The notes under the pieces: generated by a model | What the model saw: only the letters and a program-made list of their open reading frames with translations | The model's database searches: none | What the model was told of the DNA's origin: nothing | Assembly (NCBI RefSeq): GCF_017813395.1 | Contig: NZ_JAGIZB010000012.1 | Location: 1-64,000 of the forward strand | DNA from: Pararoseomonas baculiformis | GTDB taxonomy: Bacteria; Pseudomonadota; Alphaproteobacteria; Acetobacterales; Acetobacteraceae | Direction: 5' to 3' | Length of the DNA: 64,000 bases | Shown here: piece by piece, positions 42,607 to 64,000 of the stretch | How positions within the stretch are numbered: position 1 is the stretch's first letter | Layout: every line of letters starts with the position of its first letter | Made by a program: the position numbers and the translations under genes

Positions 42607-42678
42607 GTCCGCCTCCAAACCGGTGACGGACTCTACCTGCCCTTGGCCGAAATCTAGGGGCTCAGGCGACACCCGTTC

Positions 42679-42707
42679 AAAAATCGTACCAGAGCAAAAA
42701 TCGTACC
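42679..42707. repeat. Two AAAAATCGTACC direct repeats
   Basis: The 12-mer AAAAATCGTACC occurs at 42679-42690 and 42696-42707, starts 17 bp apart, about 45 bases before the TIR gene. It is AT-rich against a GC-rich background. It could be a regulator site or a small insertion-associated duplication. Confidence 0.6.
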
Positions 42708-42751
42708 CGAGTCTGACGCGGCTCATGTATCCTTCCCTACCATGCGCAGGC

Positions 42752-47568: not shown

Positions 47569-49205
47569 TTGGCGGCCTCCTCGTCGCTGAGGGCGGGGGC
47601 GCGGAAGCGCGCGGCGATCTCCGCGTGGCGCTCGATGCGGTCCACGGTGAGGTAGGGATAGGCGCTGTACCAGAAGCGGCTCACCGCGCGGCTCGCGAGC
47701 GCGTAGGCCTTGAACTTCCGCCCGTCCGCCGCCCCCTCGCGGAACAGCCAGCTTGTCCGCGGGAAGCCCACGGAGGATCCCCAGGCGATGGTGAGGCCGC
47801 CATGCGCCTTCTCGATGAAGTCGTCGAGATAGCTCGCCCAGGAGTGGTCGAAGTTCGAGAGGAAGACGAGCCGGCTGCCGTTGTCGAGGAACGACCAGTG
47901 CGCGAAGTGAACCGTTCGCATGGAGCCGAGAAAGCCCTTCCGCGCGGTCGGCAGCACCCGCAGGAAGAGGTGCAGGCCGCGGTGGCCGGCGCGGATCACG
48001 AGGCTGCGCATGATCCCGGGGCGCACGAGGACAAGCGAGGCCATATGATTCTGCGTCACCCGATCCTCCCGGCGGACGATCTCGTCGAGCGTCGCGGGGT
48101 CGATCGGCGGAAGGTCCTGCGGCGCGTCGCGCCGCTCGTTGTGGCGCACAAGCCAAGCGAGGCCGAAGGCGATCGGAACGAGGCCCGCGATGCCCCAGAG
48201 CGCAGCGGTCACCACCCTGCCGAGGAGCGGGAGCAGTTCGCCAATCTCCGCACGCCCGGCCAGCACGAGGAGGAGGTGCCCGAGGGCGGGCAGGAGGAAC
48301 AGGAGGAGCGGCGCGCCGAGAACCGCCAGGGCCAGCGCGGCGAAGATGCGGCTGTTGTCGGATGGCTTCTCCTCGGGCGGCCGCTTCGCGGCAGCGCTGC
48401 GGCGCGGCAGAAGCCCCTTCCAGCCGCCCGTGCCGCGCAGCGCCAGCGCAGCGATCACCGCGAGCACCGCGACGACGGAAAGGTAGAGTGGCACGCCGAG
48501 GGCGGTGTGCAGCAGCGCGCCGGGCAGCAGCAGCGCCGCGAGCAGGATTGCGCCAAACAGCCCGAGGCGGATGACGTCAAGCCAATCCTCGCGGCCAGGG
48601 ATACGCGCCGGCGCCGGCGCGTCGAGCCAGGGGAAGCCGGGGGCGACGCGCTCGCGCAGTCGCGCATGGATGGCGGACGGCGCCATGGCGCGGTAGCCCG
48701 GGTCGCCGTCCAGCTCCGCCTCGAGCGCAAGGGCGAGCTTCTGCTCGTCGCGAATGCGGTCGCGCGAGAGGCCGCGATTGCCTTGGTGCGAGGCGCTCGG
48801 CCAGTGGGTGCGCGCCTCAAGGTAAGGCGCGACGGGAGCGCGCGAGCCGCGCGCAGTGACCGCCCGGAACAGCGCCGCCGTGTTGTCGCGCGGCTCCTTG
48901 CAGCAGCGCAGGAGGGCGCGTAGTCGTTCCTCGCCGAAGGTGCGCTCGAACTGTGACCAGAAAGGGCCTGGCGGCCCATCGAAATTCGCCTCGATGACCA
49001 GCAGCGGATCGTAGGAGGTGTGGCGGAAAAGGCAGATCGAGAGGAAGTGCGCGGACGGGATGCCGGTCTGGATCGCAGGGAAATTGCCGAGCTCAGCATC
49101 CTCACGGGCGTCGAAGTCCTGCCGCAGGTCGTGGACCAGGCGGGTGAGAACGGCGGCGCTTTCCGGCTTCACCTCGAGAGCGACGCAGAGGATGGTTTGG
49201 ACCAT
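47550..49205 (-). CDS. Membrane protein with duplicated soluble domain, DyP-linked
   Basis: A 551-residue protein of unrecognised family. An N-terminal soluble domain (about 1-150) has IPSAHFLSICLFRHTSYDP and LLVIEANFDGPPGPFWSQFE. A central part has four or five transmembrane helices (about 205-255, 290-320, 335-365). A C-terminal domain (about 395-551) has MRTVHFAHWSFLDNGSRLVF, LSNFDHSWASYLDDFIEKAH and WYSAYPYLTVDRI. HF...D...LL.xNFD...xF is shared by both ends, pointing to a duplicated ferredoxin-like fold that faces the same side. It overlaps the DyP gene by 19 bases. A partner or anchor for the peroxidase is inference. Confidence 0.72.
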   Translation of the reverse strand: MVQTILCVALEVKPESAAVLTRLVHDLRQDFDAREDAELGNFPAIQTGIPSAHFLSICLFRHTSYDPLLVIEANFDGPPGPFWSQFERTFGEERLRALLRCCKEPRDNTAALFRAVTARGSRAPVAPYLEARTHWPSASHQGNRGLSRDRIRDEQKLALALEAELDGDPGYRAMAPSAIHARLRERVAPGFPWLDAPAPARIPGREDWLDVIRLGLFGAILLAALLLPGALLHTALGVPLYLSVVAVLAVIAALALRGTGGWKGLLPRRSAAAKRPPEEKPSDNSRIFAALALAVLGAPLLLFLLPALGHLLLVLAGRAEIGELLPLLGRVVTAALWGIAGLVPIAFGLAWLVRHNERRDAPQDLPPIDPATLDEIVRREDRVTQNHMASLVLVRPGIMRSLVIRAGHRGLHLFLRVLPTARKGFLGSMRTVHFAHWSFLDNGSRLVFLSNFDHSWASYLDDFIEKAHGGLTIAWGSSVGFPRTSWLFREGAADGRKFKAYALASRAVSRFWYSAYPYLTVDRIERHAEIAARFRAPALSDEEAAKWLRLL

Positions 49206-49735: not shown

Positions 49736-52700
49736 TCATGTCACGAGGATGGTACGGCGGGCCTGGTGCGCCGGCACCGCCGCATCTTCCACCAGGACCT
49801 TGCGCGGACCTTTTGCCGCGCCGGCGGCGATGGCGAGGGTGATGTCGCGCCCGTCAGCGGAGACGGTCACGGCGATGCCGTCGGAGGGGGTCACGGTCAC
49901 GGCGCCGGCCTTCACCGCAGCCGAGATGTGCAGGACAAGGCTGCCTCCCGCCGCAGCGCTGTCGCCCGCTGCCGGCAGTTCCAGCCGGAAATGCGGCCGG
50001 TATTCAATGCTGGCGCGGATATTGGCCGAGATGTTCTCGGTGCCGCCCCCCTGCTTCGGCTGGGTCGCGCGCAGCGCGAGCGTCCATTCGAGAAGGCAGG
50101 TTTCCTCCGGTGGGTCCGTCGGGTCGAAGGGAATGCGCAGGATGGCGCCCTCGCCCACCACCTGCGCCAGCGCCGAGGGGACGGGCGTGACGGGCTGCAG
50201 CGCCGGATCGGGATCGGTGCCGTTCGCGGGGCGGGGTGAGGGATAGGTCACGGCCAGGGCGGGGCGGGTGATGTGCAGCCGGGCGGGGATGATCAGGTAC
50301 CCCTCCTCGCCGGGCAGGACGAAGGGCTTGGGCGGCGGAAGCGGGTCCGGGGAGGCGGGCAGGAGCGATGCATGGACGGGGATGCGGTCCACCACCTCAA
50401 GGATGACGCGCCGGACAGGAATGCGCAGCTCCGGTAGGAGGTGGAACTGCGGCCAGCGTGTGTTCCGGTCCTCCTGGATGCCGAAGGGGTGCACCACGTG
50501 CACCCGCTGCACCTCCAGCACCTCCTGGCCTGTCGCCGTCTGCACTTGCAGCACGAGTTCGGCCGCCAGGCGGGCAACGGCGCCATCCACCGGGCGCTGC
50601 AGCATCAGCGCGTGCCGCCTGTCTCCCGCGGGGGCGACGGAGACTGTCACGCGCTGGCAGGGCACGGCCTTGATCGTCCCACCCTCCGGGATGTCGTGCC
50701 CGGCAGCGCGCACCGATACGTCCTTCACGGTGCGGTCGAAGAAGATGGTCTGGCTGCCCTCGTCCTGTGCCTCCTGCGCGTCGGACGCATCGAAGAAAGA
50801 CCCGGTGGTGATCCGGTGGTCGCCGGGGCGCGTGAAGGCTATCTGGATGCCGGCGGTGCGTTGCAGGCCGGCCTCGCAGGGCAGCGTCGCGATCGGGGCC
50901 GGGAGAACACGGTTCGGGACGGGAACTGTCAGCAGGGCAGGCTCCATCAGGTTGCGCTGCACGAGGATGTCGGGAACGTCGCTGGCCGCGTCGGGCGCGG
51001 CCTGCTGGTCGCGGTTCGGTGCGGCGATCGGGGCGCCACCCTGGCGCCGGGGAAAGATCCAGGGTTCGAACCCTTTCGGGTCGGCTCCCGCACCGGGAGC
51101 ATCGCCGAGGCGAAGGGGAACCAGGGTGCCCTCACGGAAGATCGTCCAGAAGCGGTAGCGCGCGATATCTCCCACCCATTCCGGCGAGCCACCCAGGCGA
51201 GCGAGCGAACTGTACAGGTCCCCGCTATGGGCGGACGCGCCCTGCTCCATGCTGGAAAGATGCCCTTTTTCCTTCACCTGCCTGAACAGGTTGTCCCAGA
51301 TGAAAACGCCGGGAAGGAGCATGGACCAGGCGCTGGAACTGAATGCCCAGCGCGAAAGCGCCAGCAACTCGTCGCGATAGCTGCCTGGGTCCGGCTTGGT
51401 GGCGAAGTGAAGTTCGGCCCAGGGGTCGTAGATCCAGTGCAGGAGCCGCACGTGCAGGTAGTCCGCAACGCCGGTGGACAGGCCCGCCAGCGGGTCGTCC
51501 CGCGCGATGAGGGCAATTGCCAGCGCCCGGTCCGGTGGGTCGGTGGGCGGCGCCGTGGCAAGCTCGACGATCCCGGCCGGATCCACGCGCGTGACCACCG
51601 TGTCCAGCGAGCGCTCCCCCGCCTGGACACGCACGCGGTCCGTCGGGTGCAGCGTGATGGCGCCGCCGGGCTGCACCGCGGCGGGCCTGGCGGGGTCGGG
51701 CACGGTGGCCGGGACGAAGTCGAGCCGGGCCGGATCGAAGAAGGGCTTTCCTTGCAGCGCGTGGACGATGCCGCGGATGAGATCCGGCACCAGCTTGAAG
51801 ACGACGGCACCCAAGGTCGATGCCAGGTTGCCCAGGGTGAAGAAGGATGCGAAGTCGAGCACGAAGCCGGCCACATCCTCGGCCGTGTTCAGCTCCTCCG
51901 CGCCTTGCCGCACTTGGACAATGCCGTCCGGTAGTTGCGCGACGGCGCTGTCCGTCAGCAGGAAGCCGCCTTCTCCTGCCTCGCCCAGCGTGACAATGAT
52001 CACCTGCCCGCCCGTGCTCAGTTCGACCTTGCGGCCGGCGGCAAACTCCACCTCGCCGGGATTTGGAATCTCCAGCCGGCGTAGCCCGCCCTGCGTGGCG
52101 ATGCGCCCCGCGGCATAGGCGGACCATTCTGGGTCACCAAGCCCCGTGAGCGACTTGAGGATATCCTCGATCAGCGCGACGGGAAGCATGCCGAACAGCA
52201 GCGGGCCCAGCATCGCCGATTGCAGGGTGTGGCGGAGCTCATGCGTCTCCAGCGAGGTCGGCCGGTCGAGATACCAGCTTTCCGTCGCATCATCCGGGAT
52301 CATCACCGTGCCGGAGGAGAGCCGGCCATCCGACCTGGCACCACCGGCGGCGGGTTTGTAGGGAAGGGCCAGGACGAGGCCGGGGCCTGGCGGCAGGTTC
52401 AGCTCCTCTGCCGTGATCTGGCTGCCATCCAGCCCATATTCGTCGAGGAGGTTCATGCCATCGATATGCAGGGCGTGCAGCGCCGCGCCGGCAGTGCCGG
52501 CGATGGTGGGCGGCAGCGCGTGCAACTCGATCGTCAGCGCCGCGGCGCGGGTGATCTGCACGGGGATGGCGGTGTTGCCGTCCGTCACGGCCCACCAGTG
52601 ATGCATGGCAGGCGTGGTCCTCAGCGCTCCCGCTGCGGTCGTATCTCCTAGATCGTCGTACCATTCCGGGCGGGCGGCGATCGCGTCCGGGGACCATGCA

Positions 52701-55700
52701 TCGAAGCGAAGCCGCGGGGCTGGCGTCGTTGCGACAACCGTGCCGCGGATCCCGCTGCTCGTCGCGCCCGTGAAGGGATTCACCGGCGCCATGCGCATCA
52801 CCTTGAGATCTGCGGGTGCCGCGGCGACGAGGGCCGGAAGGCCGGGGCCGGCGAGGCGCAGCGTGGTCCCCTCCGCCGCCTCCACGCGCAGCAGCGCGGT
52901 GGCAGCCACGCCGTTCCAGACGGCCCGCACCATCTCGCCGGCCGCGAACTGCGGCATCTGTACGGGCACGGTCGGTGGTGGCGCGGGGGCCAGGGTGAGC
53001 GGCTCCAGCGCTGCCAGCCGGTGGGCCTCGGGGCGCAGCCGGGCGCGGTCCGGAGCCAGCAGCTCCGCGGCATAGAGGAAGCCCGCGGGCATCAGCGGCA
53101 CCAGCGACAGGGCGGCGGCGCCGAGCCCGGGATCGCGATCCGTCTCCACCTCGATCCGGACAGACTTGACCAGGGCGGGCGCCACGGCTGCGCCGGCCGT
53201 CAGGCGCACGGCCTGGCCCGGCCCTGGCGCCCGCGTTGCCTCCAGCGAGCCGGTGGTCAGCCTGGCCAGGTCCGCCGGCAGGGTCAACGTGATGACCGGC
53301 CCGGAAAGGGCTGGTAGCGCCTGCAGCAACGGGGTGGCGCTGGCGGCGGCGAGGCTCGGCGCCGCACCGCCCGGGCCGCTGAGGCGTTGCAGCGACAGCG
53401 CGGGCCGCGGCGTGGAGGTGAAGCCTGCGCCGGGTGGCGCGGAAAAGGTAAAGGCCCTGACCTCCTCCAATCGGACGTCGCCGCGTTCGGGCCCGCTGAA
53501 GGCCAGCGGCTCGACATCATAGGGGCTGGCCGGGTTGCCCGGCAGCGGCGCGGTACCGAGCACCAGCTCATCCCGCCGCAGCCCCTTCCCATCCCGCACC
53601 TGGCGGATCGTGTCGTCGCCATCCACCACCAGCACGGGGCCGGCGGCCACGGCGATACCGGATGTTTCGGGCCGGTAGACGAACTCGGCGGCGCTGGTGG
53701 CGCCGTTCCATGGGCCGAGCACCCGCAGCCTCTCCAGGGGCCGCCAGCGCAGCGCGCCGGCCGCGGCGGTGGCGAGGGGCGGGGGCAGGTCACGGTCCAG
53801 CGTGCCATGGGTGGCGTCCGGCAGGTCCGTCACCAGGCGCGCGGCCGCGTCGGCGCCGGGAATGAAGACCTGGATCGCCGTGCCCTTGGTGGGTGCCGTC
53901 CCCGGGGGGAAGGCGAGGCGGCGCGGCGTCTCGGCCGTCACGGCGCGGTCTCCGCCGGCGGTGGCAGGGGCGGCCAGCCAGATCCGGCGCGGCGCATCCC
54001 CCTTGGGCGGGTCCGGTGCCAGATCCAGCTCGATTGCGGCCTCCAGCCGGTCCACCACGGCGCCGCTCACCACCGCGCCGGCCTGGCTGAGCCGAAGCGG
54101 CGTGCCGGCGGTGAAGGGGGAGGCGCTCGTCGTCCGAGCGTCCAGCCGGCCGAGTGCCGAGCCGGGCGGAAGGGCAACGGCAGCACGGGGCGGGGTGGGC
54201 GCCGTGACGCCGCGGAGCCGCAGCCCGGTCGTGCCGGGCGCGAAGGACGGATCGGTCTTCAGGACGAGGCGCGTCTCGCCGCCCGTCTCCTGCACGGCAT
54301 CGATCGCCAGGAGGGCGCGCTGCCCGCCCGGGCCGGTCAGCATGATCTCCTGCCCGGCGGGGAGGCCGAGCCCGCGGCCCTTCACCGCCAGGCGGTGCCG
54401 CTGCCCCACGAGCCCCGTCGCGACCTCTCCGCCCGGCTCGATCTCGGTGATGCTGGCCCGGGAGCGCGGGGCGAGGATGCTCGGCTGCGGCTCGAAATGA
54501 AGCCCGCCCGAAGGGAAGACAGGCACGCGCGCGCCAGGGATCACGGGTTCGGCCGGGCCGCCCCGTCGGGTCCAGCCCCGCGCCGCGAGAAGCGGGGCGA
54601 TTTCCGGCCTGGACCCGGCCGTGGTGGCCCCCCCTGGATGGAGCAGCGCGCCGCCCGGGCGCTGGGGGCCGTGCAGCAGGAGTACGCGGGCGGGCTGGCC
54701 GCCATCGGCGGGCGCCTCGATCCGCAACAGGCTGCCATAGAGCGCTGGCCGGAAGGCGGCGGAGGGAATGAAGGCGCGGGCTGCGGCAAGTTTCGTGAAC
54801 TCGGCGCGCTGCGCCCAGACGGCATGCTGGAATGTCCAGGCACGCCCCTTGTTGATTCCGACGCGCTCGAAGCCGACAGGATCGAAGCGGAAGCCCCAGC
54901 CGCCATGGTAGCGGGAGCGGATGGCGGATTTGCTGAACCACCGCCCCTCCGTCCAGAACTCCTTGCTGAAAAGGCCGAGGAGGAAGTTCAGCGGCTCCAG
55001 CAGGAAGAAGCTGGCCAGCATGTTGCCGGAGGACCAGGTGAGCGAGCTGAGCAGCAGCAGCCCGCTCGCGACGCCGGCCGACATCTCCCCGGTTGGGTCG
55101 GCGCGGCCGATCGGGTCGTTCCGGCACACGGCGAAGGGATGGCCCGCGCCGTCCCGTTCCGTCGGCAGCGTGCCGCGCCACCCGCCGGCGCGGCGGGGAT
55201 CGCGCTCGCTGCCGTCGAAAGGGTCCGGGGCCGTGAAGCGGCCGCGCCGCGGATCCAGCGAGCGGGCGCGCAGATGGACAAGACCTTCGGCCACCACCCC
55301 GCCGAAAAGGCCCGGCACGCCAGGGCAGTCCAGCAACGCCTCGCCGAAAGCGTCGCGCGGGATGATCCGCGACCTATCCCAGCCGGTGGCCCTGACGGGG
55401 GTAAGGGTGAGGTCGAGCGAGAAGATCTCCGCGGCCGGCGCATCGGGCGGGCCGTCGATGCGGCCGAGGCAGGCGAGGCCATCCCACAGATAGGTCTGGA
55501 GGATGCGCCCGTCGCCGTCCCGCAGGGTCCAGAGCCGGCCCAGCGCGTCGCGGCCATAGCGGAACGGGTCCAGGAGCGGCGTGCAAGCCGGGCCTCCTTC
55601 ATCCTGCCCGATCTCACGCCGCCCGCTATCCGGAGGATCGATGACGGCGAGGTGGCCCGCAGTGTCGTAGCCGTAGCGCCAGCACCCGCCCGGTCCGTCG

Positions 55701-56026
55701 CAGGCCACCACGCGCCCCTGCCCATCCCGCGCGACGGAAACGCCGTCCACCAGGATCGGCTGGCCTGCCTTGTTCCAGTGATAGCTTTCCTGCCAGCTCC
55801 GCCCCTGGCTGTGCACGGCCCGGATCAGCCGGCCGGGCGCGGCCAGTTCGCGCAGGCTGACGAGCCCTTCGCCGAGCATCAGCTCGCCATCCCGCCGCTC
55901 CGCGTGCAGCCGGTTCCCGGCGGAGATCCGGAGCAGGCGCCCCGCCATGTCCCGGGCAATGCGGAGGCCGGGGCCGTCCCAGCCGGGAACGGGGATGCAG
56001 GTCTCCCGAGGAGCGTCGTCCATCAT
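49736..56026 (-). CDS. Giant RHS-core protein with HExxH motif (putative toxin/peptidase)
   Basis: A 2,096-residue protein. The N-terminus has YD/RHS-like repeats (ACDGPGGCWRYGYDTAGHL, FRYGRDALGRLWTLRDGDGR) and an RHS core closing at about residues 245-314 (HLRARSLDPRRGRFTAPDP, CRNDPIGRADPTGE), the point where polymorphic toxins switch to a variable tip. A hydrophobic segment follows (LLLLSSLTWSSGNMLASFFL, about 320-345), then a very long beta-rich region. THELRHTLQSAML at 1262-1266 is a HExxH zinc-protease-like motif, followed by a hydrophobic GPLLFGMLPVALIEDI stretch and further beta domains to IgG-like sandwiches at the end. It overlaps the preceding gene by four bases (ATGA). No immunity gene is recognised downstream. 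Confidence 0.75.
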   Translation of the reverse strand: MMDDAPRETCIPVPGWDGPGLRIARDMAGRLLRISAGNRLHAERRDGELMLGEGLVSLRELAAPGRLIRAVHSQGRSWQESYHWNKAGQPILVDGVSVARDGQGRVVACDGPGGCWRYGYDTAGHLAVIDPPDSGRREIGQDEGGPACTPLLDPFRYGRDALGRLWTLRDGDGRILQTYLWDGLACLGRIDGPPDAPAAEIFSLDLTLTPVRATGWDRSRIIPRDAFGEALLDCPGVPGLFGGVVAEGLVHLRARSLDPRRGRFTAPDPFDGSERDPRRAGGWRGTLPTERDGAGHPFAVCRNDPIGRADPTGEMSAGVASGLLLLSSLTWSSGNMLASFFLLEPLNFLLGLFSKEFWTEGRWFSKSAIRSRYHGGWGFRFDPVGFERVGINKGRAWTFQHAVWAQRAEFTKLAAARAFIPSAAFRPALYGSLLRIEAPADGGQPARVLLLHGPQRPGGALLHPGGATTAGSRPEIAPLLAARGWTRRGGPAEPVIPGARVPVFPSGGLHFEPQPSILAPRSRASITEIEPGGEVATGLVGQRHRLAVKGRGLGLPAGQEIMLTGPGGQRALLAIDAVQETGGETRLVLKTDPSFAPGTTGLRLRGVTAPTPPRAAVALPPGSALGRLDARTTSASPFTAGTPLRLSQAGAVVSGAVVDRLEAAIELDLAPDPPKGDAPRRIWLAAPATAGGDRAVTAETPRRLAFPPGTAPTKGTAIQVFIPGADAAARLVTDLPDATHGTLDRDLPPPLATAAAGALRWRPLERLRVLGPWNGATSAAEFVYRPETSGIAVAAGPVLVVDGDDTIRQVRDGKGLRRDELVLGTAPLPGNPASPYDVEPLAFSGPERGDVRLEEVRAFTFSAPPGAGFTSTPRPALSLQRLSGPGGAAPSLAAASATPLLQALPALSGPVITLTLPADLARLTTGSLEATRAPGPGQAVRLTAGAAVAPALVKSVRIEVETDRDPGLGAAALSLVPLMPAGFLYAAELLAPDRARLRPEAHRLAALEPLTLAPAPPPTVPVQMPQFAAGEMVRAVWNGVAATALLRVEAAEGTTLRLAGPGLPALVAAAPADLKVMRMAPVNPFTGATSSGIRGTVVATTPAPRLRFDAWSPDAIAARPEWYDDLGDTTAAGALRTTPAMHHWWAVTDGNTAIPVQITRAAALTIELHALPPTIAGTAGAALHALHIDGMNLLDEYGLDGSQITAEELNLPPGPGLVLALPYKPAAGGARSDGRLSSGTVMIPDDATESWYLDRPTSLETHELRHTLQSAMLGPLLFGMLPVALIEDILKSLTGLGDPEWSAYAAGRIATQGGLRRLEIPNPGEVEFAAGRKVELSTGGQVIIVTLGEAGEGGFLLTDSAVAQLPDGIVQVRQGAEELNTAEDVAGFVLDFASFFTLGNLASTLGAVVFKLVPDLIRGIVHALQGKPFFDPARLDFVPATVPDPARPAAVQPGGAITLHPTDRVRVQAGERSLDTVVTRVDPAGIVELATAPPTDPPDRALAIALIARDDPLAGLSTGVADYLHVRLLHWIYDPWAELHFATKPDPGSYRDELLALSRWAFSSSAWSMLLPGVFIWDNLFRQVKEKGHLSSMEQGASAHSGDLYSSLARLGGSPEWVGDIARYRFWTIFREGTLVPLRLGDAPGAGADPKGFEPWIFPRRQGGAPIAAPNRDQQAAPDAASDVPDILVQRNLMEPALLTVPVPNRVLPAPIATLPCEAGLQRTAGIQIAFTRPGDHRITTGSFFDASDAQEAQDEGSQTIFFDRTVKDVSVRAAGHDIPEGGTIKAVPCQRVTVSVAPAGDRRHALMLQRPVDGAVARLAAELVLQVQTATGQEVLEVQRVHVVHPFGIQEDRNTRWPQFHLLPELRIPVRRVILEVVDRIPVHASLLPASPDPLPPPKPFVLPGEEGYLIIPARLHITRPALAVTYPSPRPANGTDPDPALQPVTPVPSALAQVVGEGAILRIPFDPTDPPEETCLLEWTLALRATQPKQGGGTENISANIRASIEYRPHFRLELPAAGDSAAAGGSLVLHISAAVKAGAVTVTPSDGIAVTVSADGRDITLAIAAGAAKGPRKVLVEDAAVPAHQARRTILVT

Positions 56027-59000
56027 CCCGCCTCCACCCGGACGGAAACGGAGGCGGTGCCGCCGGCGGCAGCGAAGTGCAGCGCCTCCAGCAGCGTGGC
56101 AATCTCGGCCCGGACCGCCTCCACGGCGCGGCCGAATTCTCCCACCACGCGCGGGCCGAGGCGGTCCACCGCCTCCAGCATGGCCCGTGGGTCCAGCTCG
56201 GTGAGTGTGGCGCCGATCTCCTCCAGCTCCTCGCCCACTCCCTCCAGCGCCGCGGCGGGCGATGCCGCGGAGAGGCCGGCCACCGCTTCGTCCAGGAAGT
56301 CCAGTTCGCCGAGCGTGGCGGCGACGTCGATCCCGCGAAGCGTGGCGGAAAGGTCCAGCACGGCCTCGCGCAGCCCAGTCGCGATCACGGCGGGGTCGTA
56401 GGTGGCCAGCGCCTCGCGCAGCGCCGCGTGGACAAGGTCCAGGTCCGCTGCCAGGTGGTGCGGGTTCAGCCCGTCCAGCTCCTCCCGCACCGCGTCCAGC
56501 ACCCGGCGGAAGCGCAGGGCCAGCATCGCGGGGCCGTAGTCACGCACGAAGCCTGTGACGCGCAGGGGCAGCGCGGCAATGCGGCCCCGCAGAGGCAGGG
56601 CCAGCGGCGGCAGGCGTTCAAGAGCCGTCGCGACCAGCTCGTCCACCTCCACGGCCAGGGGCTCCGGGTCAAGCTGATCGAGAAATCCGGCGAGGCCGCC
56701 ACCGGCCTGCGGCAAGGCCGCCTGCAGGCGCCCCGCGATCGCCTCCGCCGCCGCCGAGGCATCCCCGACCGCGGCCACCGTGCGGCGGATCTCGTCGCGT
56801 AGCGGGGCCATGGCGCCCTGCAACTCCAGGCGCAGGGCGTCGGGGCTGGCCGCGGCGAGCGCATCCGCTGTGGCATCCAGTTCCAGCGGGCCGAGCTGCA
56901 GCCGTGCCTGGACGGCGAAGCCTGCCTCCAGCCCGGCGGAGGAAAGGGGGCGCAGCAGCGTGTCCAGCCCGTCCTGGACCCGGTCCTCGATCTGCCAGAT
57001 CACTCCCTCGATCCCCCTGAGGTCCCGGACGAGGCCGGTGGTCAGGCGGGCGAAGGCCGCCTCGGCCTCGCCCAGCGGCCCTGCCTCCAGGGACGCCACC
57101 GTCTCCTTCAACCGGCGCGGCAGCGTGCCGAGGAGCCGGACGAAGTCGCCGGGGCGCCGCTCCGCGGGAGGAGGGGGCGAGGAGGAGGGTGCCGCGGTAC
57201 CCGGCGTGGCACCAAGGGTGGGGCCGAGCGGGGCGGTGAGGCCCTGGCCGAGCTGCTCCGCACCCTGGGCCAGGAAGCCCTCGGTGGCCGTGCCGGCGGC
57301 GGTCGGATCCGGGAGCACGAGGCGGGCGAAGGCCTCGTCATAGGCATCGAGCACCGGGCGCAGCAGGGTGCTCGGCTTCACCGCATCCACGGCGCCGAGC
57401 AATCCACGGAAGGGGGCTCTCAGCCCTTCCAGCGCCGGCACGGGATCCAGCTTCGCCACCGCATCCGCCAACTCGTCCAGAAGGCGCTTCAGCGCGGCGA
57501 CGAGGCGGGCGGAGGAGAGCGCGGCGAAGGCTTCGGTGGCCCGCGCGAGTTCGGCCTCGATGCCCTGGACAAGCGAGGCCGGGACAAGGTTGTCGAGGGC
57601 CCTGCTGACCTCGTCCAGCAGCGCGGAGAGGCGGCCGCGCAGGGCGTCGGAAAGCGTGAGCCTCTCAGCTTCCCGGCGCACGGGTTCGAGCAGCAGCGCA
57701 TCGAGGTCCAGCGCCCGGAGCTCCGCGACAAGCTGCTCCACCACAGGGCGGAGGGGCTCAGGCAGCTCCACGCCCGAGAGCAGGTCCTGCGCCTTGCGCC
57801 GCAACCCGGACAGGCGGTCGAGGATGGACTGGGTGGCCCCTTCGATGTCCATCCCGTCGATGGCGGCGACAACCTCGTCCAGCGTGGCCTTGAAGCCGCG
57901 GAGCAGCGCCGCCGCCTGCTCCAGCAGCCCGCGCGCCTGGGCCACCAGGGATGAAACCGCGGCGGCGATGGCCTGCAGCGCCTCTGCGACGGAATTGACG
58001 ACCTCCCTGATCGTGGCCGCGATCGCCTGCAGCGGCGCGCGCAGCCTTTCGCCGAGGTCATCGGCCGAGATCAACCCGCCCAGCCCGGCCAGGCGCTCCC
58101 GCGCCTCCCGCGCGAAGCGGTCCAGATCGGCGTCCCGGACAGCGCGGGCATAGGTCTCGAAGCGGGCGTGCAGGGCGCCGCGCATCTCGGCCAGGTGCAG
58201 GTGGCCGAGGAAGCTGCGGACATAGGCGACCAACTCGTCGGCCAGCGCATCGACACGCTCCTCGACAGCCGCCTTTGCATCGGCCTCCAGCGTGTCGAGC
58301 ATGCCCTCGAACAGCGCCACCAGTTCCTCCACCCGGGCGGCGTCCAGCGCATCGATCTCCGACCGCGTGGACCGGATGAGGCCGCGCAGCTCCTCCATCA
58401 TCTCGCGGAAGCCGGACTCGCCGGTGCGGAAGGCGCCCGCAGCGGCGGTGATCGGCGCGACGGCCTGGGGCAGCCTCAGGGCGGAAAGCCGTGCCTGGAG
58501 CGAGAGAAGATCCTGGCGCAGCTGCCCGAGGGTGGCCTTGCGGGCCTCCGCCAGCCGGCCCAGCGCCGCCGTGACGGCAGGCCCGGCATCCGGGCCGGTG
58601 GCCGCATCGCGGACCTCCCCTATGGCCGTCATCAGCCCCGCCATGCGGCCGGCCGGCAGGGCGATGGAGCCGAGCGCCGGCAGCGTGCCGTCAAGCAGGC
58701 GGCGGAGCGCGCCGAGATCGGCGTCCCCGAAGGGCAGCATCATGCCCAGCCCCTGCTCCACCAGCGCGGCGGGCTGGCGCGGGAGGCCAGCGGCGGTGAG
58801 GGCGAGCGCATGGGTGAAGCGGCCCGTATCGGCCAGGGCGACATGGTCGAACTCGTCCGCGCCGCGCAGGAGCGAGGTCAGCGCCTCTCCCACGGGCAGC
58901 TTCAGGGCGCGGAGCCAGGAGGCCGGGGTGCCGTCCACGTCCCGGAGCAGGCCCGATACGGCCTCGGCGCCCTCCTTCACGGCCCGGATATAGGGCTCCA

Positions 59001-59253
59001 CCGGGACGTCGGCGGGCCGCAGCGTGCCGGCGAGGCCGCCCACGGCACCGAGAAGCGGGCCGAGCAGGGCGGCGGGATCCTCGGACAGGGCGCGCAGTTC
59101 CCGCAGCTGGTCGCCGACCTCGCCCAGCGCGCCAAGCGGCCCGTGCTCGACCAACCCGCTCACGGCGGGGCCTTCCAGGGACACGGTGATGCTGGCCCGG
59201 GCGGCCATGATGCCGGAGAGGTCGAGCCCGCGCAGGTCGTCGAGCAGGGTCAT
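56023..59253 (-). CDS. Very long helix-rich protein of unknown function
   Basis: A 1,076-residue protein made almost wholly of Ala/Leu/Glu/Arg amphipathic helices (for example VEELVALFEGMLDTLEADAK, AAVEERVDALADELVAYV and LLEQAAALLRGFKATLDEVV), with one flexible Pro/Ser linker (PSSSPPPPAERRPGDF, about residue 690). It has no transmembrane helix, signal or catalytic motif. The helical repeats are irregular. Length and helicity are like a tape measure, tether or scaffold protein, but no homology is claimed. ATG 59253 and the stop at 56023 both form ATGA overlaps with neighbours. Confidence 0.68.
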   Translation of the reverse strand: MTLLDDLRGLDLSGIMAARASITVSLEGPAVSGLVEHGPLGALGEVGDQLRELRALSEDPAALLGPLLGAVGGLAGTLRPADVPVEPYIRAVKEGAEAVSGLLRDVDGTPASWLRALKLPVGEALTSLLRGADEFDHVALADTGRFTHALALTAAGLPRQPAALVEQGLGMMLPFGDADLGALRRLLDGTLPALGSIALPAGRMAGLMTAIGEVRDAATGPDAGPAVTAALGRLAEARKATLGQLRQDLLSLQARLSALRLPQAVAPITAAAGAFRTGESGFREMMEELRGLIRSTRSEIDALDAARVEELVALFEGMLDTLEADAKAAVEERVDALADELVAYVRSFLGHLHLAEMRGALHARFETYARAVRDADLDRFAREARERLAGLGGLISADDLGERLRAPLQAIAATIREVVNSVAEALQAIAAAVSSLVAQARGLLEQAAALLRGFKATLDEVVAAIDGMDIEGATQSILDRLSGLRRKAQDLLSGVELPEPLRPVVEQLVAELRALDLDALLLEPVRREAERLTLSDALRGRLSALLDEVSRALDNLVPASLVQGIEAELARATEAFAALSSARLVAALKRLLDELADAVAKLDPVPALEGLRAPFRGLLGAVDAVKPSTLLRPVLDAYDEAFARLVLPDPTAAGTATEGFLAQGAEQLGQGLTAPLGPTLGATPGTAAPSSSPPPPAERRPGDFVRLLGTLPRRLKETVASLEAGPLGEAEAAFARLTTGLVRDLRGIEGVIWQIEDRVQDGLDTLLRPLSSAGLEAGFAVQARLQLGPLELDATADALAAASPDALRLELQGAMAPLRDEIRRTVAAVGDASAAAEAIAGRLQAALPQAGGGLAGFLDQLDPEPLAVEVDELVATALERLPPLALPLRGRIAALPLRVTGFVRDYGPAMLALRFRRVLDAVREELDGLNPHHLAADLDLVHAALREALATYDPAVIATGLREAVLDLSATLRGIDVAATLGELDFLDEAVAGLSAASPAAALEGVGEELEEIGATLTELDPRAMLEAVDRLGPRVVGEFGRAVEAVRAEIATLLEALHFAAAGGTASVSVRVEAG

Positions 59254-60782
59254 CTGGCATACCGCAGGATGAGGTCGGCGAAGTCGAGCGTGAGGAACAG
59301 GTCGCTGGACAGGCTGGGCCAGGCGCCGGCGAAGGCGGCGGGCGGCAGGGCGAGGCCGGTCCGGCGGATGGAGGTGGCGCCGACCGACAGAAGCGTGCCG
59401 CTGCCGATCCGCACCGGGCGGCCGCCCGGGTCCGGATCCAGAACGGCCAGGCGCAGGGACGGCGCGCCGTCCTCTCGCGCGGCCCAGAGAAAGCGGCCGG
59501 CCGTGGCGCGCAGGGCGACGACGAGCGGCCCCTGGACGAGAGGGGCATCCGGGAGAGCGAACCAGTGCGTTCCGAAGCGGCGGGAGGCGGGAAGCGTCAG
59601 CTTCGCCGGCACGCCGAGAGCGGCGCCCGTCACGCCGTCCTGAAGGGTGAGGAGAAGGGTGGTGGCTTCCGGGGCGCGGCCGCTCACCCCGATCCGCGCC
59701 AGGCGGGCGCCCAGCAGGGCGAGTGGCGGCAGGGGGCGGAGCATGTCGGCCGGGCCGACCACATGGCCCGCCACGAGGCTGCCGGAGGCGCCGGATGGCG
59801 GGTCGCTGAGCTCCGGGACCAGGCGGATGCCGAAATAGCGGATGCTCAGGTCGGCGCTGGCGGCGGTGGGCACCTCCCCGTCCGGGGGTGCCTCGCCGGG
59901 CCCGGCCGCGAGGGAGAGAGCCTCGCCGGCCAGGGAGAGACCCGGCGGCGCCGCGATGCGCCGGAGCAGGGCGCCTTCCGCCCGGAAGCGGAGCGATCCG
60001 ATCGTGGAGGGACGGCTTGCGGTGAGGCGCAGCGCCAGGCGCGGCGGTTCGCCCCTGTCCAGCGCCGCCTGCATCGCCGTCTCGATCCCGGTGCGGAGAT
60101 CCGTCTCGGCGGCGTTCCCGGCCGGCATCTCGCCGGGGAAGGCCCAGAGCGCGGCCCCGCCCTCCACGGCCAGCGCCAGATCCAGCGGCGAGTCCGAGGC
60201 GAAGCCCTCGGCGCCCTCCAGCGCCATGCCCTCGATCGGGGCGAAGCTGTCGGGCCGGTCGCCGGTCACGAGGGTCAGGCGGATGCGACGGGCCAGGATC
60301 CCGCCGAGGTCCAGAACCCCGGCGGAGAAGGGTGGCGTTGGCAAGGGTGGAACCAGGCCCGAGGCGGGCAGGCCGGGCGTGGCGCCCGCCGGCGTGTACC
60401 GGCCGCTGCCGTCCGGCACCGAGATGGCGAGCCTGAGGCCCAGCGCCTGGAGGTCCGCCGGACCGCCGATGGCCAGTGTGCCGGCCTTGAGCCCGCGCAG
60501 CGCCACCCGGCCCAGGCGCCGCCCGGCCGGTGCCGTCAGCTCGTAGCCACCGCCGGCCGTGGCAAGGGCCAGGGCGCCCAGCGCGGCCTCGCGCGCCCAT
60601 GCGGTGAGGGATAAGGGGGCCCGGGCCACCTCGGCGCGATTGGCGCCGCGCGGGGTGCGGCCCCAGTCGATCGTCAAGGCCTGGCCCTGAGCGGTCACCT
60701 CGACCGACGACAAGGCGGCCAGGACGCCAGCGGGCTCCATGATGGACCGTTCGGCCGCGATGAGGTTGAGGGAGCCCGACAT
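59250..60782 (-). CDS. Beta-rich protein of unknown function in the RHS operon
   Basis: A 510-residue protein that looks all-beta, with many Gly/Pro-Asp turns (DLGGILARRIRLTLVTGD, LTLPASRRFGTHWFALPD) and an N-terminal SGSLNLIAAERSIMEPAGV. The middle has LFWAFPGEMP-like and RFRAEGALLRRIAAPPGL blocks. No signal peptide or enzyme motif is visible. It reads like a structural component (carbohydrate-binding-like or baseplate-like sandwiches), which is inference from composition. Start ATG 60782 is nine bases after the previous stop, and its end overlaps the helical protein gene by four bases. Confidence 0.6.
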   Translation of the reverse strand: MSGSLNLIAAERSIMEPAGVLAALSSVEVTAQGQALTIDWGRTPRGANRAEVARAPLSLTAWAREAALGALALATAGGGYELTAPAGRRLGRVALRGLKAGTLAIGGPADLQALGLRLAISVPDGSGRYTPAGATPGLPASGLVPPLPTPPFSAGVLDLGGILARRIRLTLVTGDRPDSFAPIEGMALEGAEGFASDSPLDLALAVEGGAALWAFPGEMPAGNAAETDLRTGIETAMQAALDRGEPPRLALRLTASRPSTIGSLRFRAEGALLRRIAAPPGLSLAGEALSLAAGPGEAPPDGEVPTAASADLSIRYFGIRLVPELSDPPSGASGSLVAGHVVGPADMLRPLPPLALLGARLARIGVSGRAPEATTLLLTLQDGVTGAALGVPAKLTLPASRRFGTHWFALPDAPLVQGPLVVALRATAGRFLWAAREDGAPSLRLAVLDPDPGGRPVRIGSGTLLSVGATSIRRTGLALPPAAFAGAWPSLSSDLFLTLDFADLILRYAR

Positions 60783-60791
60783 CGCCCCGCC

Positions 60792-61700
60792 TCAGCCCGG
60801 CCCGGTGCGGAGCGGGAAATGACCGAGCGGAGACCCGCGCGGATTGCCATCCGGATCGGTCAGACGGATCAGGAGCTCCTCCTGTCCGGGGGTCGGGGGC
60901 GGCGTGTAGCCGAAGGCCGCGCCGTCGGCGGTCAGCGGCACGAGCCGCGTGCCGCCCGGCCCATCAGTGCCGCCCGAAAGCGTGCCTGTGCCGGCGCTGC
61001 CATCCGGGCGGCGCAGGGCGAGGGACAGGGTGCCGAAGGGTTCCTGCGAGGGCGATGCGTCCGCCCGCAGGCGCATCTCGCCCGCTGCGTCGGATTCCAG
61101 CTTCAGGGCCACCGCGGGCCCTCCGGCGACCAGCGGGCCCGCGGCGCCCACGAGGCGGAGCGGGAGAAGGGCGGTGCGCAGGCGGATGTCCTGGATGGCG
61201 GCGCCGGTCTCGCCCGGGATTTCGGTTGGCCAGAACCAGCCCTCGGACAGCAGGTGGAGGATTGCTGCTCCGTCCGCATCCCCGGCCCTGGGCGGACGCG
61301 CATCGAGCACGGAGAGGCGCGTGATCTGGAAGCCAGGATCTTCCGGCGGCGGCACGCGCAGGGCCACACCCGTGGTGAGATCAGCGGCCTCGCTGAGATA
61401 GAGCGCGCGCTCCAGCCCCTCCATCGCCTCCGCCCTGTCGGCCGGGTCCGCAGGGATGACGCGCAATTCGATGGTCAGTGCCAGGCGCAGCACGCGGAGC
61501 CGGCGATCGGGGTTGCGGGTGGTGACCTCCGGTCGCCGCGCCGCGCCGAAGTCGGTGCCCGCGGGGAGGATGTCCGTGATGCCGAGCAGGATGCTCGGGC
61601 CTGCGCCGGGCAGGGGGGCCGTGCTGACCCGCCCGCCGAAGGGTGGCGGCAGGCGGTCGCCCAGCACCTCGGCCAGGCGCTGCTCGAAGGCGGCGATCAC
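60792..61700 (-). CDS. Protein of unknown function in the RHS operon
   Basis: A 302-residue protein. The N-terminal part (MIAAFEQRLAEVLGDRLPPP, STAPLPGAGPSILLGITDIL) begins with a helix and then strands. The middle has VLRLALTIELRVIPADPADR and LERALYLSEAADL, a layout loosely like phage or injection-system tail-terminator/cap proteins that begin with a short helix and an alpha/beta domain. The C-terminus is beta-rich with Gly/Thr repeats. No established family is assigned. ATG 61700 overlaps the stop of the preceding gene (ATGA). Confidence 0.55.
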   Translation of the reverse strand: MIAAFEQRLAEVLGDRLPPPFGGRVSTAPLPGAGPSILLGITDILPAGTDFGAARRPEVTTRNPDRRLRVLRLALTIELRVIPADPADRAEAMEGLERALYLSEAADLTTGVALRVPPPEDPGFQITRLSVLDARPPRAGDADGAAILHLLSEGWFWPTEIPGETGAAIQDIRLRTALLPLRLVGAAGPLVAGGPAVALKLESDAAGEMRLRADASPSQEPFGTLSLALRRPDGSAGTGTLSGGTDGPGGTRLVPLTADGAAFGYTPPPTPGQEELLIRLTDPDGNPRGSPLGHFPLRTGPG

Positions 61701-63217
61701 CGGATGCGGTCCGGGCGGAAGACGCCCGTTCCCCCGATGCCGCCGCCTGCGACCCCGGTGCCCGGGCCGGAGGCCGCCAGGCGCGTGCCGATACTGGCGT
61801 TCAGCCGTTCCTCCGACCGGGCCATCTCCGTGCGGAGCGTTGTCATGCTGCGCGTCTCGGTCTCGGTGATCAGGCGCGTCGTGTCGGTGCGGAGCTGTGT
61901 CATGTCCCGGCCGATGCTGCCCCGCAGGTCGCTCATCTCCCGCAGCATCTGGTCCCGCAGCTGGCCCAGCTGGGCCGCGGAGTTCCGCTCCGACACGGCG
62001 AGGCGCTCATTGGCCTGGCCCAGCAGCCGGCCCTGTTCGGCGAGCCCCGCCTCGCTGATGGAAAGGCGGTTCCCCAGCGTGTCGAGCGCGGCCTGGAAGG
62101 CGGCGAGACGCGTGCTCAGGCCCGTTTCCACCGCCGCGCCGGCCATGGCGGGCAGGCGTGCCTCCAGCGCGCCCGCCTGTTCGGTCAGCTTCGCCACCAG
62201 CCGCGCATCGGAGGCTGCCAGGCGGGAATCGGTGGCGGCCAGAAGTTCCTGGCGCAAGGCGGCGTTCGCGGCGTTCTGTGCCTCGCGCGAGCCGGCCAGG
62301 ATCTCGTCCCGAAGGGCCGGGGTGGCCTCCGCGAGGCGGCGCGTGACCAGCGCGTCGAAGCCGCCGACCTGCTCGGCGGTGTTGGCGCGCAGCCGTGTCT
62401 CCAGCGCGTCCAGGTCGCCCCGTATCCCATCCGTCAGCTCTGCGCGGAGATTGTCGCGCAACGCGTCGCGATCCTCCGTGCTGAGCCCTCCCGGCCTGCT
62501 CTTCAGGGCTTCGTCCAGTTCCTCGCTGCTGACGCTCCGCGCCTCGATCTCGGCGAGGCGGCGCTCCAGTCCGGCGGCGGTCAGGATCTCCTGGTTGGAC
62601 TGGCGCAGGCCGTCTCTCAGCCTCTCCAGCTCCCCGACACGGCCGAGCAGCGCGCCGGCATCAAGGGGCTGGCCGTTCACGCTCAGCGCGCTGGCGGCCA
62701 CGATGGCGCGCCGGGCATCGGCGCTGACGATATCGAGCGAGCGGCGCAGGGCGGTGATCTGGTCGGCCGTGCCGGCGCCACCGGCCTCGGCCGCGCGGCG
62801 GAGGCGGATCACCTCGTCGCCGCGCAGGGCGTCGTTGGTCGCGAAGGAGACGACGCGCTCGCGCAGGGTGGCGGATTGCTCCTCCAGCCGGTCCAGCCGG
62901 TCCGTGGCGCGCCGGATCTGGATGTCCAGCTCCAGCGGCCGGCTCGCGGTGGCAGGGTCGGAAAGGCCGCCGCGCTCGAAGGCCGCGCGCAGGTCCGGGT
63001 GCAGCCAGTTCAGCCGTACCTGCTCCGGATGGTCATGGGGCGGCACGCTGGCCGGGCGGTCCCCCTCGTCCAGCACGGCGCGGGTGAGTTCCAGCACCCC
63101 CTCCACGAGCGTGTTCCAGCGCGCCGCCTCGATGGGCTGGCCCGGCTGCGCCTTCGCCAGCGGCGCTAGGCGGCCGAGGATGGCGGACAGGCGCTCCAGT
63201 GCCTCGACGGTGGGCAT
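61697..63217 (-). CDS. Coiled-coil rod protein with HDHPE module
   Basis: A 506-residue protein. Residues 1-70 hold AARWNTLVEGVLELTRAVL and then VPPHDHPEQVRLNW, followed by about 400 residues of continuous coiled coil (LEEQSATLRERVVSFATNDA, LRQSNQEILTAAGLERRLAE, LLGQANERLAVSERNSA). The C-terminus is a Gly-rich tail (GTGVAGGGIGGTG). HxH pairs next to a WN-L helix occur in trimeric phage fibre and spike proteins, where they bind metal. The sequence lacks a signal peptide. A fibre or spike-collar role is inference. The same module occurs in the next gene upstream. Confidence 0.62.
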   Translation of the reverse strand: MPTVEALERLSAILGRLAPLAKAQPGQPIEAARWNTLVEGVLELTRAVLDEGDRPASVPPHDHPEQVRLNWLHPDLRAAFERGGLSDPATASRPLELDIQIRRATDRLDRLEEQSATLRERVVSFATNDALRGDEVIRLRRAAEAGGAGTADQITALRRSLDIVSADARRAIVAASALSVNGQPLDAGALLGRVGELERLRDGLRQSNQEILTAAGLERRLAEIEARSVSSEELDEALKSRPGGLSTEDRDALRDNLRAELTDGIRGDLDALETRLRANTAEQVGGFDALVTRRLAEATPALRDEILAGSREAQNAANAALRQELLAATDSRLAASDARLVAKLTEQAGALEARLPAMAGAAVETGLSTRLAAFQAALDTLGNRLSISEAGLAEQGRLLGQANERLAVSERNSAAQLGQLRDQMLREMSDLRGSIGRDMTQLRTDTTRLITETETRSMTTLRTEMARSEERLNASIGTRLAASGPGTGVAGGGIGGTGVFRPDRIR

Positions 63218-63220
63218 CCC

Positions 63221-64000
63221 TCATGTCCCCCGGATCACGCCGCCGAGCTTGTTGCCGATCGAGACGCCCGTGCGGGTGTAGGTCTGCAGCTCCGTCTCGC
63301 GCTTCTGCACGGTGCCGGTGCTGCTGTACTGGCTGGCCACCGCGTTCAGCTTCCGTGTCACGGCATCGTTGAGGAAGGCTTCCCGTGTTTCCGGCGGCTG
63401 GGCCTCGCCCACGGTCTGCACGCCGTTGAGGATGGCCTGGCCGGCGCGGGCGAGCTTGCCGGTGAAGGTGCCGGTATCGGTCTGCAGCGAGTCCTCCAGC
63501 TCGTCGAGGCGGCGCTTCAGGTCGTCCCGCACCAGGGGCGAGGCATTGCCCAGGTTCAGCACGTCATCCGCCGCCCGGCGCAGGCTGAGCAGCTCCAGTT
63601 CCCGCCGCAGCTCCACCAGGCTCCGGCCGAAGGCCTCGGCGAAGGCGCGCAGGTTGGCCTGCACCTCGTCGATCCGCTCCGCGATCTCGGGATGGTCGTG
63701 GCCGCGCGGCGAGACGAGGCGGGAGAGTTCCCCGACCGATCCCGCCAGGTCCCCGATGGCGGTGGAGAGGGCGTTGAAGTCGGAAGCGCGGATCACCTCG
63801 CCCGGCGCCTTGTCCGCCACCGGCGCGACCCGGGCCTGCACCGCCGCGACGGCCTGCTGCACCGGGCCGAGATCGGCGTCCGGAAGGTCGCGGATCGGCG
63901 TATCCCGGAACAGGTTCGCCGGGATCGGAATGGGCACATAGGTCGGGATGTTCTGAGGGAAGAGGCGGATGCGCTGGCGCGCGATGGGAAGCGTGAGGTT
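63221..64000 (-). CDS. HDHPE-module protein, 5' end beyond the window
   Basis: At least 259 residues, open to the window edge (upstream codons read NLTLPIARQRIRLFPQ before VPIPIPANLFRD). RASDFNALSTAIGDLAG and LVSPRGHDHPEIAERIDEVQ match the module of the downstream rod protein. A coiled coil (RAFAEAFGRSLVELRRELEL) and a C-terminal domain with TYTRTGVSIGNKLGGVIRGT follow. Its stop is three bases before the next start, so it is the same operon, which continues beyond 64000. The true start is not visible; GTG 63937 is an internal candidate. Confidence 0.6.
   Translation of the reverse strand, partial: NLTLPIARQRIRLFPQNIPTYVPIPIPANLFRDTPIRDLPDADLGPVQQAVAAVQARVAPVADKAPGEVIRASDFNALSTAIGDLAGSVGELSRLVSPRGHDHPEIAERIDEVQANLRAFAEAFGRSLVELRRELELLSLRRAADDVLNLGNASPLVRDDLKRRLDELEDSLQTDTGTFTGKLARAGQAILNGVQTVGEAQPPETREAFLNDAVTRKLNAVASQYSSTGTVQKRETELQTYTRTGVSIGNKLGGVIRGT

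What the first reader, a model, noticed from the sequence alone, without database searches (positions are those of the whole stretch)
49736..64000. Candidate undescribed multi-gene system: fibre-like, scaffold-like and RHS/HExxH proteins in one coupled operon
Six large genes (at least 259, 506, 302, 510, 1,076 and 2,096 residues) follow one another on the minus strand with ATGA overlaps or gaps of at most nine bases, so they are made together. Two share an HDHPE fibre-like module, one is a long helical protein, and the last is a giant RHS-core protein with a HExxH site. This looks like the distal part of a toxin-delivery or surface-attached machine. No sheath, tube, spike or ATPase gene is visible, so it may be incomplete here or be something new. 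Four of the six match no family I can name.
Basis: partly seen in the sequence, partly recalled or inferred. Interest (0 to 1): 0.85.

Follow-up and report, generated by a model that had tools for sequence, protein, structure and literature searches.

The report
Contractile injection machine lacking an ATPase
These six genes are the downstream half of a bacterial spring-loaded syringe related to virus tails; it belongs to a rare branch in which the motor gene usual for toxin-injecting versions was not found, and it ends in a giant possible cargo protein.

Summary
The six genes are the 3' part of an 18-gene minus-strand cluster on the same contig: a response regulator, then sheath, probable tube, a 385-aa protein, gpU-like protein, hub, spike, PAAR tip, gp25, baseplate J, a tail-I-like protein and a small phage-type protein, then the six. 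The 17 genes from sheath to RHS keep their order in Humitalea rosea and (one gene by position only) in Sphingomonas sp. 1F27F7B, so the unit is real and has clear ends. It is a contractile injection system. The 302-aa 'unknown' is modelled as a tail terminator (cap). No AAA+ ATPase was found in it. Its baseplate J is closest to phage and tailocin proteins, not to eCIS; a canonical eCIS elsewhere in the Sphingomonas genome shares no detectable protein match with it. The 1,076-aa helical protein is the likely tape measure (inferred). The 2,096-aa protein is the best candidate payload; its HELxHTLQ motif is conserved in all three copies, but activity is not shown. One metagenome survey, as I read its filters, would discard this layout. 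Verdict: new variant of a known kind.

The parts
63221..64000 (-). Fibre or baseplate-peripheral protein G6 (321 aa; runs on to ATG 64186 beyond the window) with PRGHDHPE module
   Evidence: 80% and 49% identical in Humitalea and Sphingomonas over the part in the window, H-x-H-P-E invariant
61697..63217 (-). Second fibre-like protein G5 (506 aa), PPHxH module at the N-terminus, then a long helix-prone tail
   Evidence: 62% and 32% identical in the two relatives; no Pfam family at E up to 1
60792..61700 (-). Tail/sheath terminator (cap) G4 (302 aa): residues 1-160 terminator fold, then an Ig-like C-terminal domain
59250..60782 (-). Unknown protein G3 (510 aa), conserved; possible peripheral or target-binding part (inferred)
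   Evidence: 59% and 34% identical in the two relatives; no family at E up to 1 in Pfam, PHROGs or NCBIfam
56023..59253 (-). Long helix-prone protein G2 (1,076 aa), candidate tape measure (inferred)
   Evidence: lengths 1,076, 1,055 and 1,076 aa in three genomes at 69% and 33% identity to the window copy; weak PHROG tail matches, best E 2.5e-4, tape-measure families E 0.028 and worse; helix-prone, no transmembrane-like stretch
49736..56026 (-). Giant protein G1 (2,096 aa): short RHS part ending NDPIGRADPTG, long body, HELRHTLQ site at residue 1262; candidate payload or tip protein (inferred)
   Evidence: 68% and 35% identical in the two relatives; HELxHTLQ and an RHS-core-like end present in all 3

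Best explanation
The six genes are the downstream half of an 18-gene cluster for a contractile injection system: a headless, phage-tail-like particle in which no AAA+ ATPase of the canonical eCIS kind was found. SHOWN by sequence or predicted fold: contractile sheath, hub, OB-fold spike, PAAR tip, gp25 sheath initiator, baseplate J, a tail-terminator fold in the 302-aa protein, a GerE-type response regulator upstream, and conservation of the gene order in three genomes of two orders. INFERRED: the tube assignment rests on gene position and weak matches. The 1,076-aa helical protein sets tube length. The HxH fibre-like proteins, the 166-aa phage-type protein and the 510-aa protein decorate the baseplate and bind the target. 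The particle assembles in the cytoplasm, leaves the cell by an unknown route, binds a target, contracts, and drives the PAAR-tipped tube through the envelope. The giant RHS/HExxH protein at the 3' end of the operon is the delivered or tip-mounted effector. About 0.95 that this is a contractile injection system, about 0.85 that it is a headless particle rather than a phage, about 0.5 that the giant protein is its payload.
For: Core parts: PAAR, OB spike (Phage_base_V) and GPD hub pass their Pfam cut-offs; sheath C-terminal domain (26.8 bits, cut-off 26.9), gp25/sheath initiator and Tail_P2_I are significant or near it but below cut-off. PHROGs: sheath E 1.2e-21, baseplate wedge E 1.3e-44, gp25-like baseplate E 1.6e-15, baseplate E 7.7e-9. 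Baseplate J profile against all solved structures: 8 matches at E up to 0.1, the best a wedge protein (6.7e-15), with the diffocin TRI-2 protein third and no chain named as eCIS (that TRI-2/CD1371 is diffocin is recalled and fits the diffocin entry 8v3t). GerE response regulator. Cap fold. Gene order: in Humitalea rosea 18 of the 21 proteins compared matched, 53-88% identical over the main alignments; the other 3 are flanking genes. In Sphingomonas 15 of 21 matched, 33-63%; the RHS gene follows directly and the 385-aa gene is matched by position only. No AAA in Pfam scans of the 18 proteins nor on the contigs of the three genomes. No portal, terminase or capsid family in the cluster apart from one weak PHROG match of the tube, nor in 10 flanking genes.
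Against: Delivery of the giant protein is unproven: the model of its HExxH region failed (mean pLDDT 38.9), and it has no Pfam protease or DUF4157 match at E up to 1. No conserved neighbour looks like an immunity gene, which weakens an antibacterial-toxin reading. No release or lysis gene is conserved. The cap model is of middling confidence and Foldseek support is weak. The tube is assigned by position; its best PHROG match is called 'major head protein' (E 2.1e-6) and its profile finds no tube in solved structures. The AAA searches scored 150 of 159 candidates in the window genome and 150 of 220 in Humitalea. Four proteins do match a Streptomyces eCIS weakly: regulator 1e-10, spike 3e-5, gp25 1e-4, J 0.004.
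Confidence: 0.77

Rival explanations
1. It is an R-type tailocin: a contractile particle that kills by membrane puncture alone, with the giant RHS protein acting as a fibre or adhesin and not as cargo.
For: No ATPase found; phage-like baseplate J, with diffocin TRI-2 among its matches in solved structures; separate hub and spike genes as in phages; collar of pyocin R2 second among the closest cap structures; an endolysin-like gene lies upstream in the window genome.
Against: The candidate tape measure lies near the end of the operon, not between tube and baseplate. The PAAR protein has no match in 50,697 phage records. The endolysin-like gene was not found beside the cluster in the relatives. 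A conserved 2,096-aa RHS/HExxH protein is not a usual tailocin part (recalled).
Confidence: 0.2
2. It is a canonical eCIS (Afp/PVC/MAC type) so diverged that the ATPase and Pvc16 domain are no longer recognised.
For: GerE regulator beside the cluster in 2 of 3 genomes, a domain reported next to 25.8% of eCIS loci (PMC8213781, passages); weak matches of regulator, spike, gp25 and J to a Streptomyces eCIS; PAAR; a cap that also resembles eCIS caps; eCIS-like order with fibres and candidate tape measure after baseplate J.
Against: No AAA match on the contig in three genomes. The eCIS of the same Sphingomonas genome, on another contig, has both Pvc16_N and AAA, and none of 21 proteins here match the 17 proteins I called there at E up to 0.01. 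Baseplate J groups with phages, support 99/97, and finds no chain named as eCIS in solved structures. Hub and spike are separate genes.
Confidence: 0.1
3. It is a decayed prophage or an unusual phage tail region.
For: Nearly every recognised part is a phage-tail part.
Against: The same gene set sits in different neighbourhoods in three genomes. No portal or terminase family in the cluster or in 10 flanking genes. The sheath has no match in 50,697 phage records or in the pattern scan of viral contigs.
Confidence: 0.05

Closest known systems
Extracellular contractile injection systems (Afp, PVC, MAC, AlgoCIS; Streptomyces CIS; Anabaena tCIS)
   Same: Sheath/baseplate set without head genes, PAAR tip, cap with terminator fold, GerE regulator nearby, big 3'-terminal gene
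   Different: No AAA+ ATPase found, no Pvc16_N or LysM match, hub and spike are separate genes, baseplate J nearer phages than the two eCIS tested
R-type tailocins (pyocin R2, diffocin, monocin)
   Same: No ATPase; headless phage-like tail; their collars are among the nearest cap structures; diffocin TRI-2 matches baseplate J
   Different: PAAR tip, candidate tape measure near the operon end, giant RHS/HExxH protein, GerE regulator
Contractile phage tails with phrog_6 type baseplate J (e.g. halophages HF1 and ChaoS9, Komagataeibacter phage phiKX1)
   Same: Baseplate J homology (BLAST E 1e-14 to 2e-8)
   Different: J here is about 580 aa against 374-419 aa in these three; no head genes found; sheath and PAAR have no match in the phage records
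Partial loci in an Acetobacteraceae MAG (L032) and a Cyanobacteria MAG (L033)
   Same: PAAR 67-69% identical, baseplate J relatives (E 6e-40, 1e-34), gp25, spike and hub
   Different: Different fibre set, 803-811 aa protein after J, no RHS match; contigs too short to show a sheath

Membership tests
Contractile injection system (general) | Contractile sheath plus gp25-type initiator plus baseplate J | tested here: met
Contractile injection system (general) | Inner tube protein | tested here: inconclusive
   131-aa gene after the sheath, conserved in 3 genomes; no Pfam match, weak PHROG matches, no tube in solved structures
Canonical eCIS | AAA+ ATPase (Afp15/Cis15) in the cluster | tested here: not met
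   No AAA in Pfam scans of the 18 proteins. PF00004: 24 matches in the window genome, none on contig C14 (150 of 159 candidates scored); none on the matching contigs of Humitalea (150 of 220 scored) or Sphingomonas (116 of 116). The same search finds an AAA beside Pvc16_N in the Sphingomonas eCIS
Canonical eCIS | Pvc16_N (PF14065) cap | tested here: not met
   No match in the window genome (where no control rang) or Humitalea; it rings at the Sphingomonas eCIS (2.2e-22) and the Streptomyces plasmid, not at this cluster. A terminator fold itself is predicted
Canonical eCIS | Single VgrG-like Afp8 joining hub and spike | tested here: not met
   Hub (PF05954) and spike (PF04717) are two genes
Canonical eCIS | LysM-bearing Afp7 | tested here: not met
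   No LysM in Pfam scans of the 18 proteins; the gene in that place is weakly gpU/DUF6046-like
Canonical eCIS | Baseplate J clusters with Afp11 | tested here: not met
   Tree of 16 rows: 2 eCIS rows split from the other 14, support 99/97; two long branches (one an eCIS row), small reference set; no chain named as eCIS among 8 matches in solved structures
Canonical eCIS | PAAR tip | tested here: met
   PF05488 E 8e-8
Canonical eCIS | Tape measure (Afp14) and fibre (Afp13) | tested here: inconclusive
   Candidates by shape and place only
Canonical eCIS | Payload with DUF4157-type HExxH | tested here: inconclusive
   HELxHTLQ conserved in 3, but no DUF4157 match
R-type tailocin | Headless tail without ATPase | tested here: met
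   By gene content only
R-type tailocin | Lysis cassette in the cluster | tested here: inconclusive
   Endolysin-like gene upstream in the window genome; not found beside the cluster in relatives
R-type tailocin | No protein cargo | not testable with these tools
   Needs purified particles
Type VI secretion system | Membrane complex TssJLM and two-part sheath TssBC | tested here: not met
   No such family in Pfam or NCBIfam scans of the cluster; only sub-cut-off VgrG and PAAR-domain matches; one sheath gene
Prophage | Capsid, portal and terminase genes | tested here: not met
   No portal or terminase in the cluster or in 10 flanking proteins; the only head-type match in the cluster is the weak one of the tube gene

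The most novel reading that the evidence does not exclude
A separate lineage of cargo-delivering contractile injection systems arose from a phage tail independently of the eCIS. It works without the AAA+ loading ATPase and carries a giant (2,096-aa) RHS/HExxH effector. Survey filters that equate 'fibre and tape measure but no ATPase' with phage or tailocin have hidden it.
Probability: 0.4. Interest if true: 0.75.

Novelty: new variant of a known kind. Interest (0 to 1): 0.55.

Why it matters
In PVC the ATPase is reported to help load effectors into the tube (PMC11495950, abstract start seen). A cargo-bearing particle without it would show that loading can be done another way, and could give a simpler delivery scaffold. 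It would also mean that a survey using the ATPase to tell eCIS from phages and tailocins misses real systems. A named strain, Humitalea rosea DSM 24525, carries the whole cluster, so the idea can be tested directly.

Tried and rejected
Family searches with Pfam, PHROGs and NCBIfam on the six proteins gave little beyond RHS. Sheath against phages, plasmids and solved structures by sequence: no match or only unrelated ones at E 0.43 and worse. Tube profile against solved structures: only unrelated matches at E 0.24 and worse. Sheath profile at E up to 1e-8 in 385 genomes of the class: only the window genome. The only genome-contig scan used two short patterns from baseplate J, so 4 loci is a lower bound on frequency. 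Viral-contig scans: none for the sheath; 10 distant baseplate J matches, 27-39% over part of the protein, not studied further.

HExxH domain in 249 family genomes: 3 matches; one (E 2.4e-4, with stops) overlaps a TonB-receptor-like frame and was set aside as chance. No match in plasmids. AF2 of RHS residues 1080-1690 failed; no fold search was run on it. The 1,076-aa profile hits a 999-aa protein in L032 (E 1.2e-8), but the bias correction exceeds the score, so I do not count it. In the baseplate J tree one of 17 rows (prophage_L019) was dropped because its extracted frame was only 32 aa; two of the 16 remaining have long branches. Of the 65 weaker family matches only 6 were taken for that tree, the dropped one included; that these 65 are phage-type J genes is inferred. 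The Streptomyces plasmid PAAR hit was a lone gene some 17 kb from that plasmid's eCIS genes. PADLOC: nothing at E up to 0.001 on the six. Gene calls in fetched relatives came from a simple codon-usage script of mine, so small genes may be missed.

Literature: 8 of 10 searches used. 'contractile injection' with Acetobacteraceae gave 0 papers; with Sphingomonas 2, judged from the listing as unrelated; with PAAR, tailocin, Rhs and effector 2, unrelated by listing; wordings for an absent ATPase gave 9, none on this by listing. Papers used: PMC8213781 and PMC12210884, passages found by term search; PMC10598620, passages; PMC11495950, start of abstract in a listing. I found no description of this cluster in those searches.
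Full report
What is there. The window is bases 1-64000 of a 179,049-base contig. Reading on, with contig coordinates continuing window coordinates, the operon goes upstream to a sheath gene: G7 (166 or 170 aa) 64197-64697/64709, tail-I-like 425 aa 64702-65979, baseplate J 583 aa 65976-67727, gp25 67724-68185, PAAR 68187-68588, spike 68588-69247, hub 69244-70266, gpU/DUF6046-like 70263-70913, 385-aa protein 70910-72067, probable tube 72087-72482, sheath stop at 72510, then a response regulator 74388-75059. The open sheath frame is 617 aa, but ATG 74204 after GGAGG matches where the Humitalea match begins. Between regulator and sheath lies a terminator-like hairpin.

Conservation and extent. In Humitalea rosea, a second genus of the same family as the window genome (NCBI lineage Roseomonadaceae), 18 of 21 compared proteins match, from regulator to RHS; the 3 that do not are flanking genes. 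In Sphingomonas sp. 1F27F7B, another order, 15 of 21 match on the first locus at 33-63% identity. The RHS gene follows directly at 30-36%, and a 404-aa gene without a sequence match stands where the 385-aa gene should be. Neither the regulator nor the flanks were found beside the Sphingomonas copy. The unit is therefore sheath to RHS, 17 genes. It is rare: of 249 family genomes 68 have some J match, but only the window genome and Humitalea (82%) have a close one and one MAG a distant one (39%); the other 65 are weaker, E 1.6e-14 and worse, probably phage-type J genes. Five congeners have no match. In 385 genomes of the class only the window genome matched the sheath profile at E up to 1e-8.

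What is missing. No AAA domain shows in Pfam scans of the 18 proteins. None of 24 AAA matches in the window genome lies on this contig (150 of 159 candidates scored), and none on the matching contigs in Humitalea (150 of 220 scored) and Sphingomonas. Pvc16_N has no match in the window genome (no control rang there) or Humitalea; it rings in a Streptomyces plasmid eCIS and, in Sphingomonas, only on another contig, about 2 kb from an AAA match: a canonical eCIS. That eCIS matches the Streptomyces eCIS sheath (2.5e-55), while none of the 21 proteins compared here match its 17 called proteins at E up to 0.01. Against a clean separation, regulator (1e-10), spike (3e-5), gp25 (1e-4) and J (0.004) do match the Streptomyces eCIS weakly. 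In a 16-row tree of baseplate J, the two eCIS proteins separate from the new cluster plus phages with support 99/97; two branches are long and the reference set is small. A J profile against all solved structures gives 8 matches at E up to 0.1: wedge, baseplate or phage-gene names, with diffocin TRI-2 third and no chain named as eCIS. No portal or terminase family appears in the cluster or in 10 flanking proteins.

How it most likely works. A headless contractile particle: cap, sheath, tube, baseplate and PAAR-tipped spike (by sequence or predicted fold, the tube by place), with two HxH fibre-like proteins, G7 and the 510-aa protein at the periphery (inferred), and the 1,076-aa helical protein as tape measure. 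The last is inferred from shape and from length, 1,076, 1,055 and 1,076 aa although the window and Sphingomonas copies are only 33% identical. The giant last gene resembles the 3'-terminal toxins of eCIS operons in place: Geller et al. report such toxins at the 3' end, often with DUF4157, and GerE regulators next to 25.8% of loci (PMC8213781, passages). Its RHS part is short and weak. HELxHTLQ is exact in three orthologues, recalling the HExxH of DUF4157 (recalled; no Pfam match). The model of that region failed, so enzyme activity is open. No conserved immunity gene follows it, which does not favour a kin-killing toxin.

Known or new. It is a contractile injection system, so the kind is known. 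It fails several defining features of canonical eCIS and differs from tailocins in its PAAR tip, gene order and giant protein. A metagenome survey states that loci with Cis13 and Cis14 but without Cis15 and Cis6 were removed as phage or R-type bacteriocins (PMC12210884, passages). If the fibre and tape-measure calls here are right, this cluster would be removed; it might also fail earlier steps of that survey. My literature searches showed no description of it. I rate it a new variant of a known kind.

A wider group. A Cyanobacteria MAG and an Acetobacteraceae MAG carry relatives of PAAR (67-69%), gp25, spike, hub and J with a different fibre set, so this may be one branch of a larger overlooked group. 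No significant sheath match was found on their short contigs.

Noticed in passing
L048/L049 (Sphingomonas sp. 1F27F7B, contig of 84,475 bases, about 62-84 kb): A canonical eCIS with Pvc16_N and AAA in the same genome as the new cluster, with a 3,438-aa open frame beside it.
   Followed up: partly
window 42572-44404 (+): 610-aa protein with a TIR domain and a tectonin-type propeller; weak ThsB-like PADLOC match.
   Followed up: partly
window 44669-49205 (-): Three overlapping genes next to the cluster: cytochrome P450, a DyP-peroxidase-like protein (weak match) and a protein with membrane-spanning stretches.
   Followed up: partly
contig 75691-77325 (-), L005:12691-14325: Endolysin-like protein (peptidoglycan-binding, VanY and SLT domains) 0.6 kb upstream of the regulator, not found beside the cluster in the two relatives; could be a release gene.
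   Followed up: partly
contig 78053-81830, L005: SLATT-like membrane protein (below cut-off) and, on the other strand, a protein with a weak TIR-effector match; possible defence genes.
   Followed up: no
contig 74384-74407 (-), L005:11384-11407: Terminator-like hairpin just after the response regulator gene and before the sheath; possible attenuation or a separate promoter.
   Followed up: no
NZ_CP030074.1 173671-174066 (L043): Lone PAAR gene 51% identical to this one on a Streptomyces cadmiisoli plasmid, beside a 1,383-bp gene for a hypothetical protein and some 17 kb from that plasmid's own eCIS genes.
   Followed up: no
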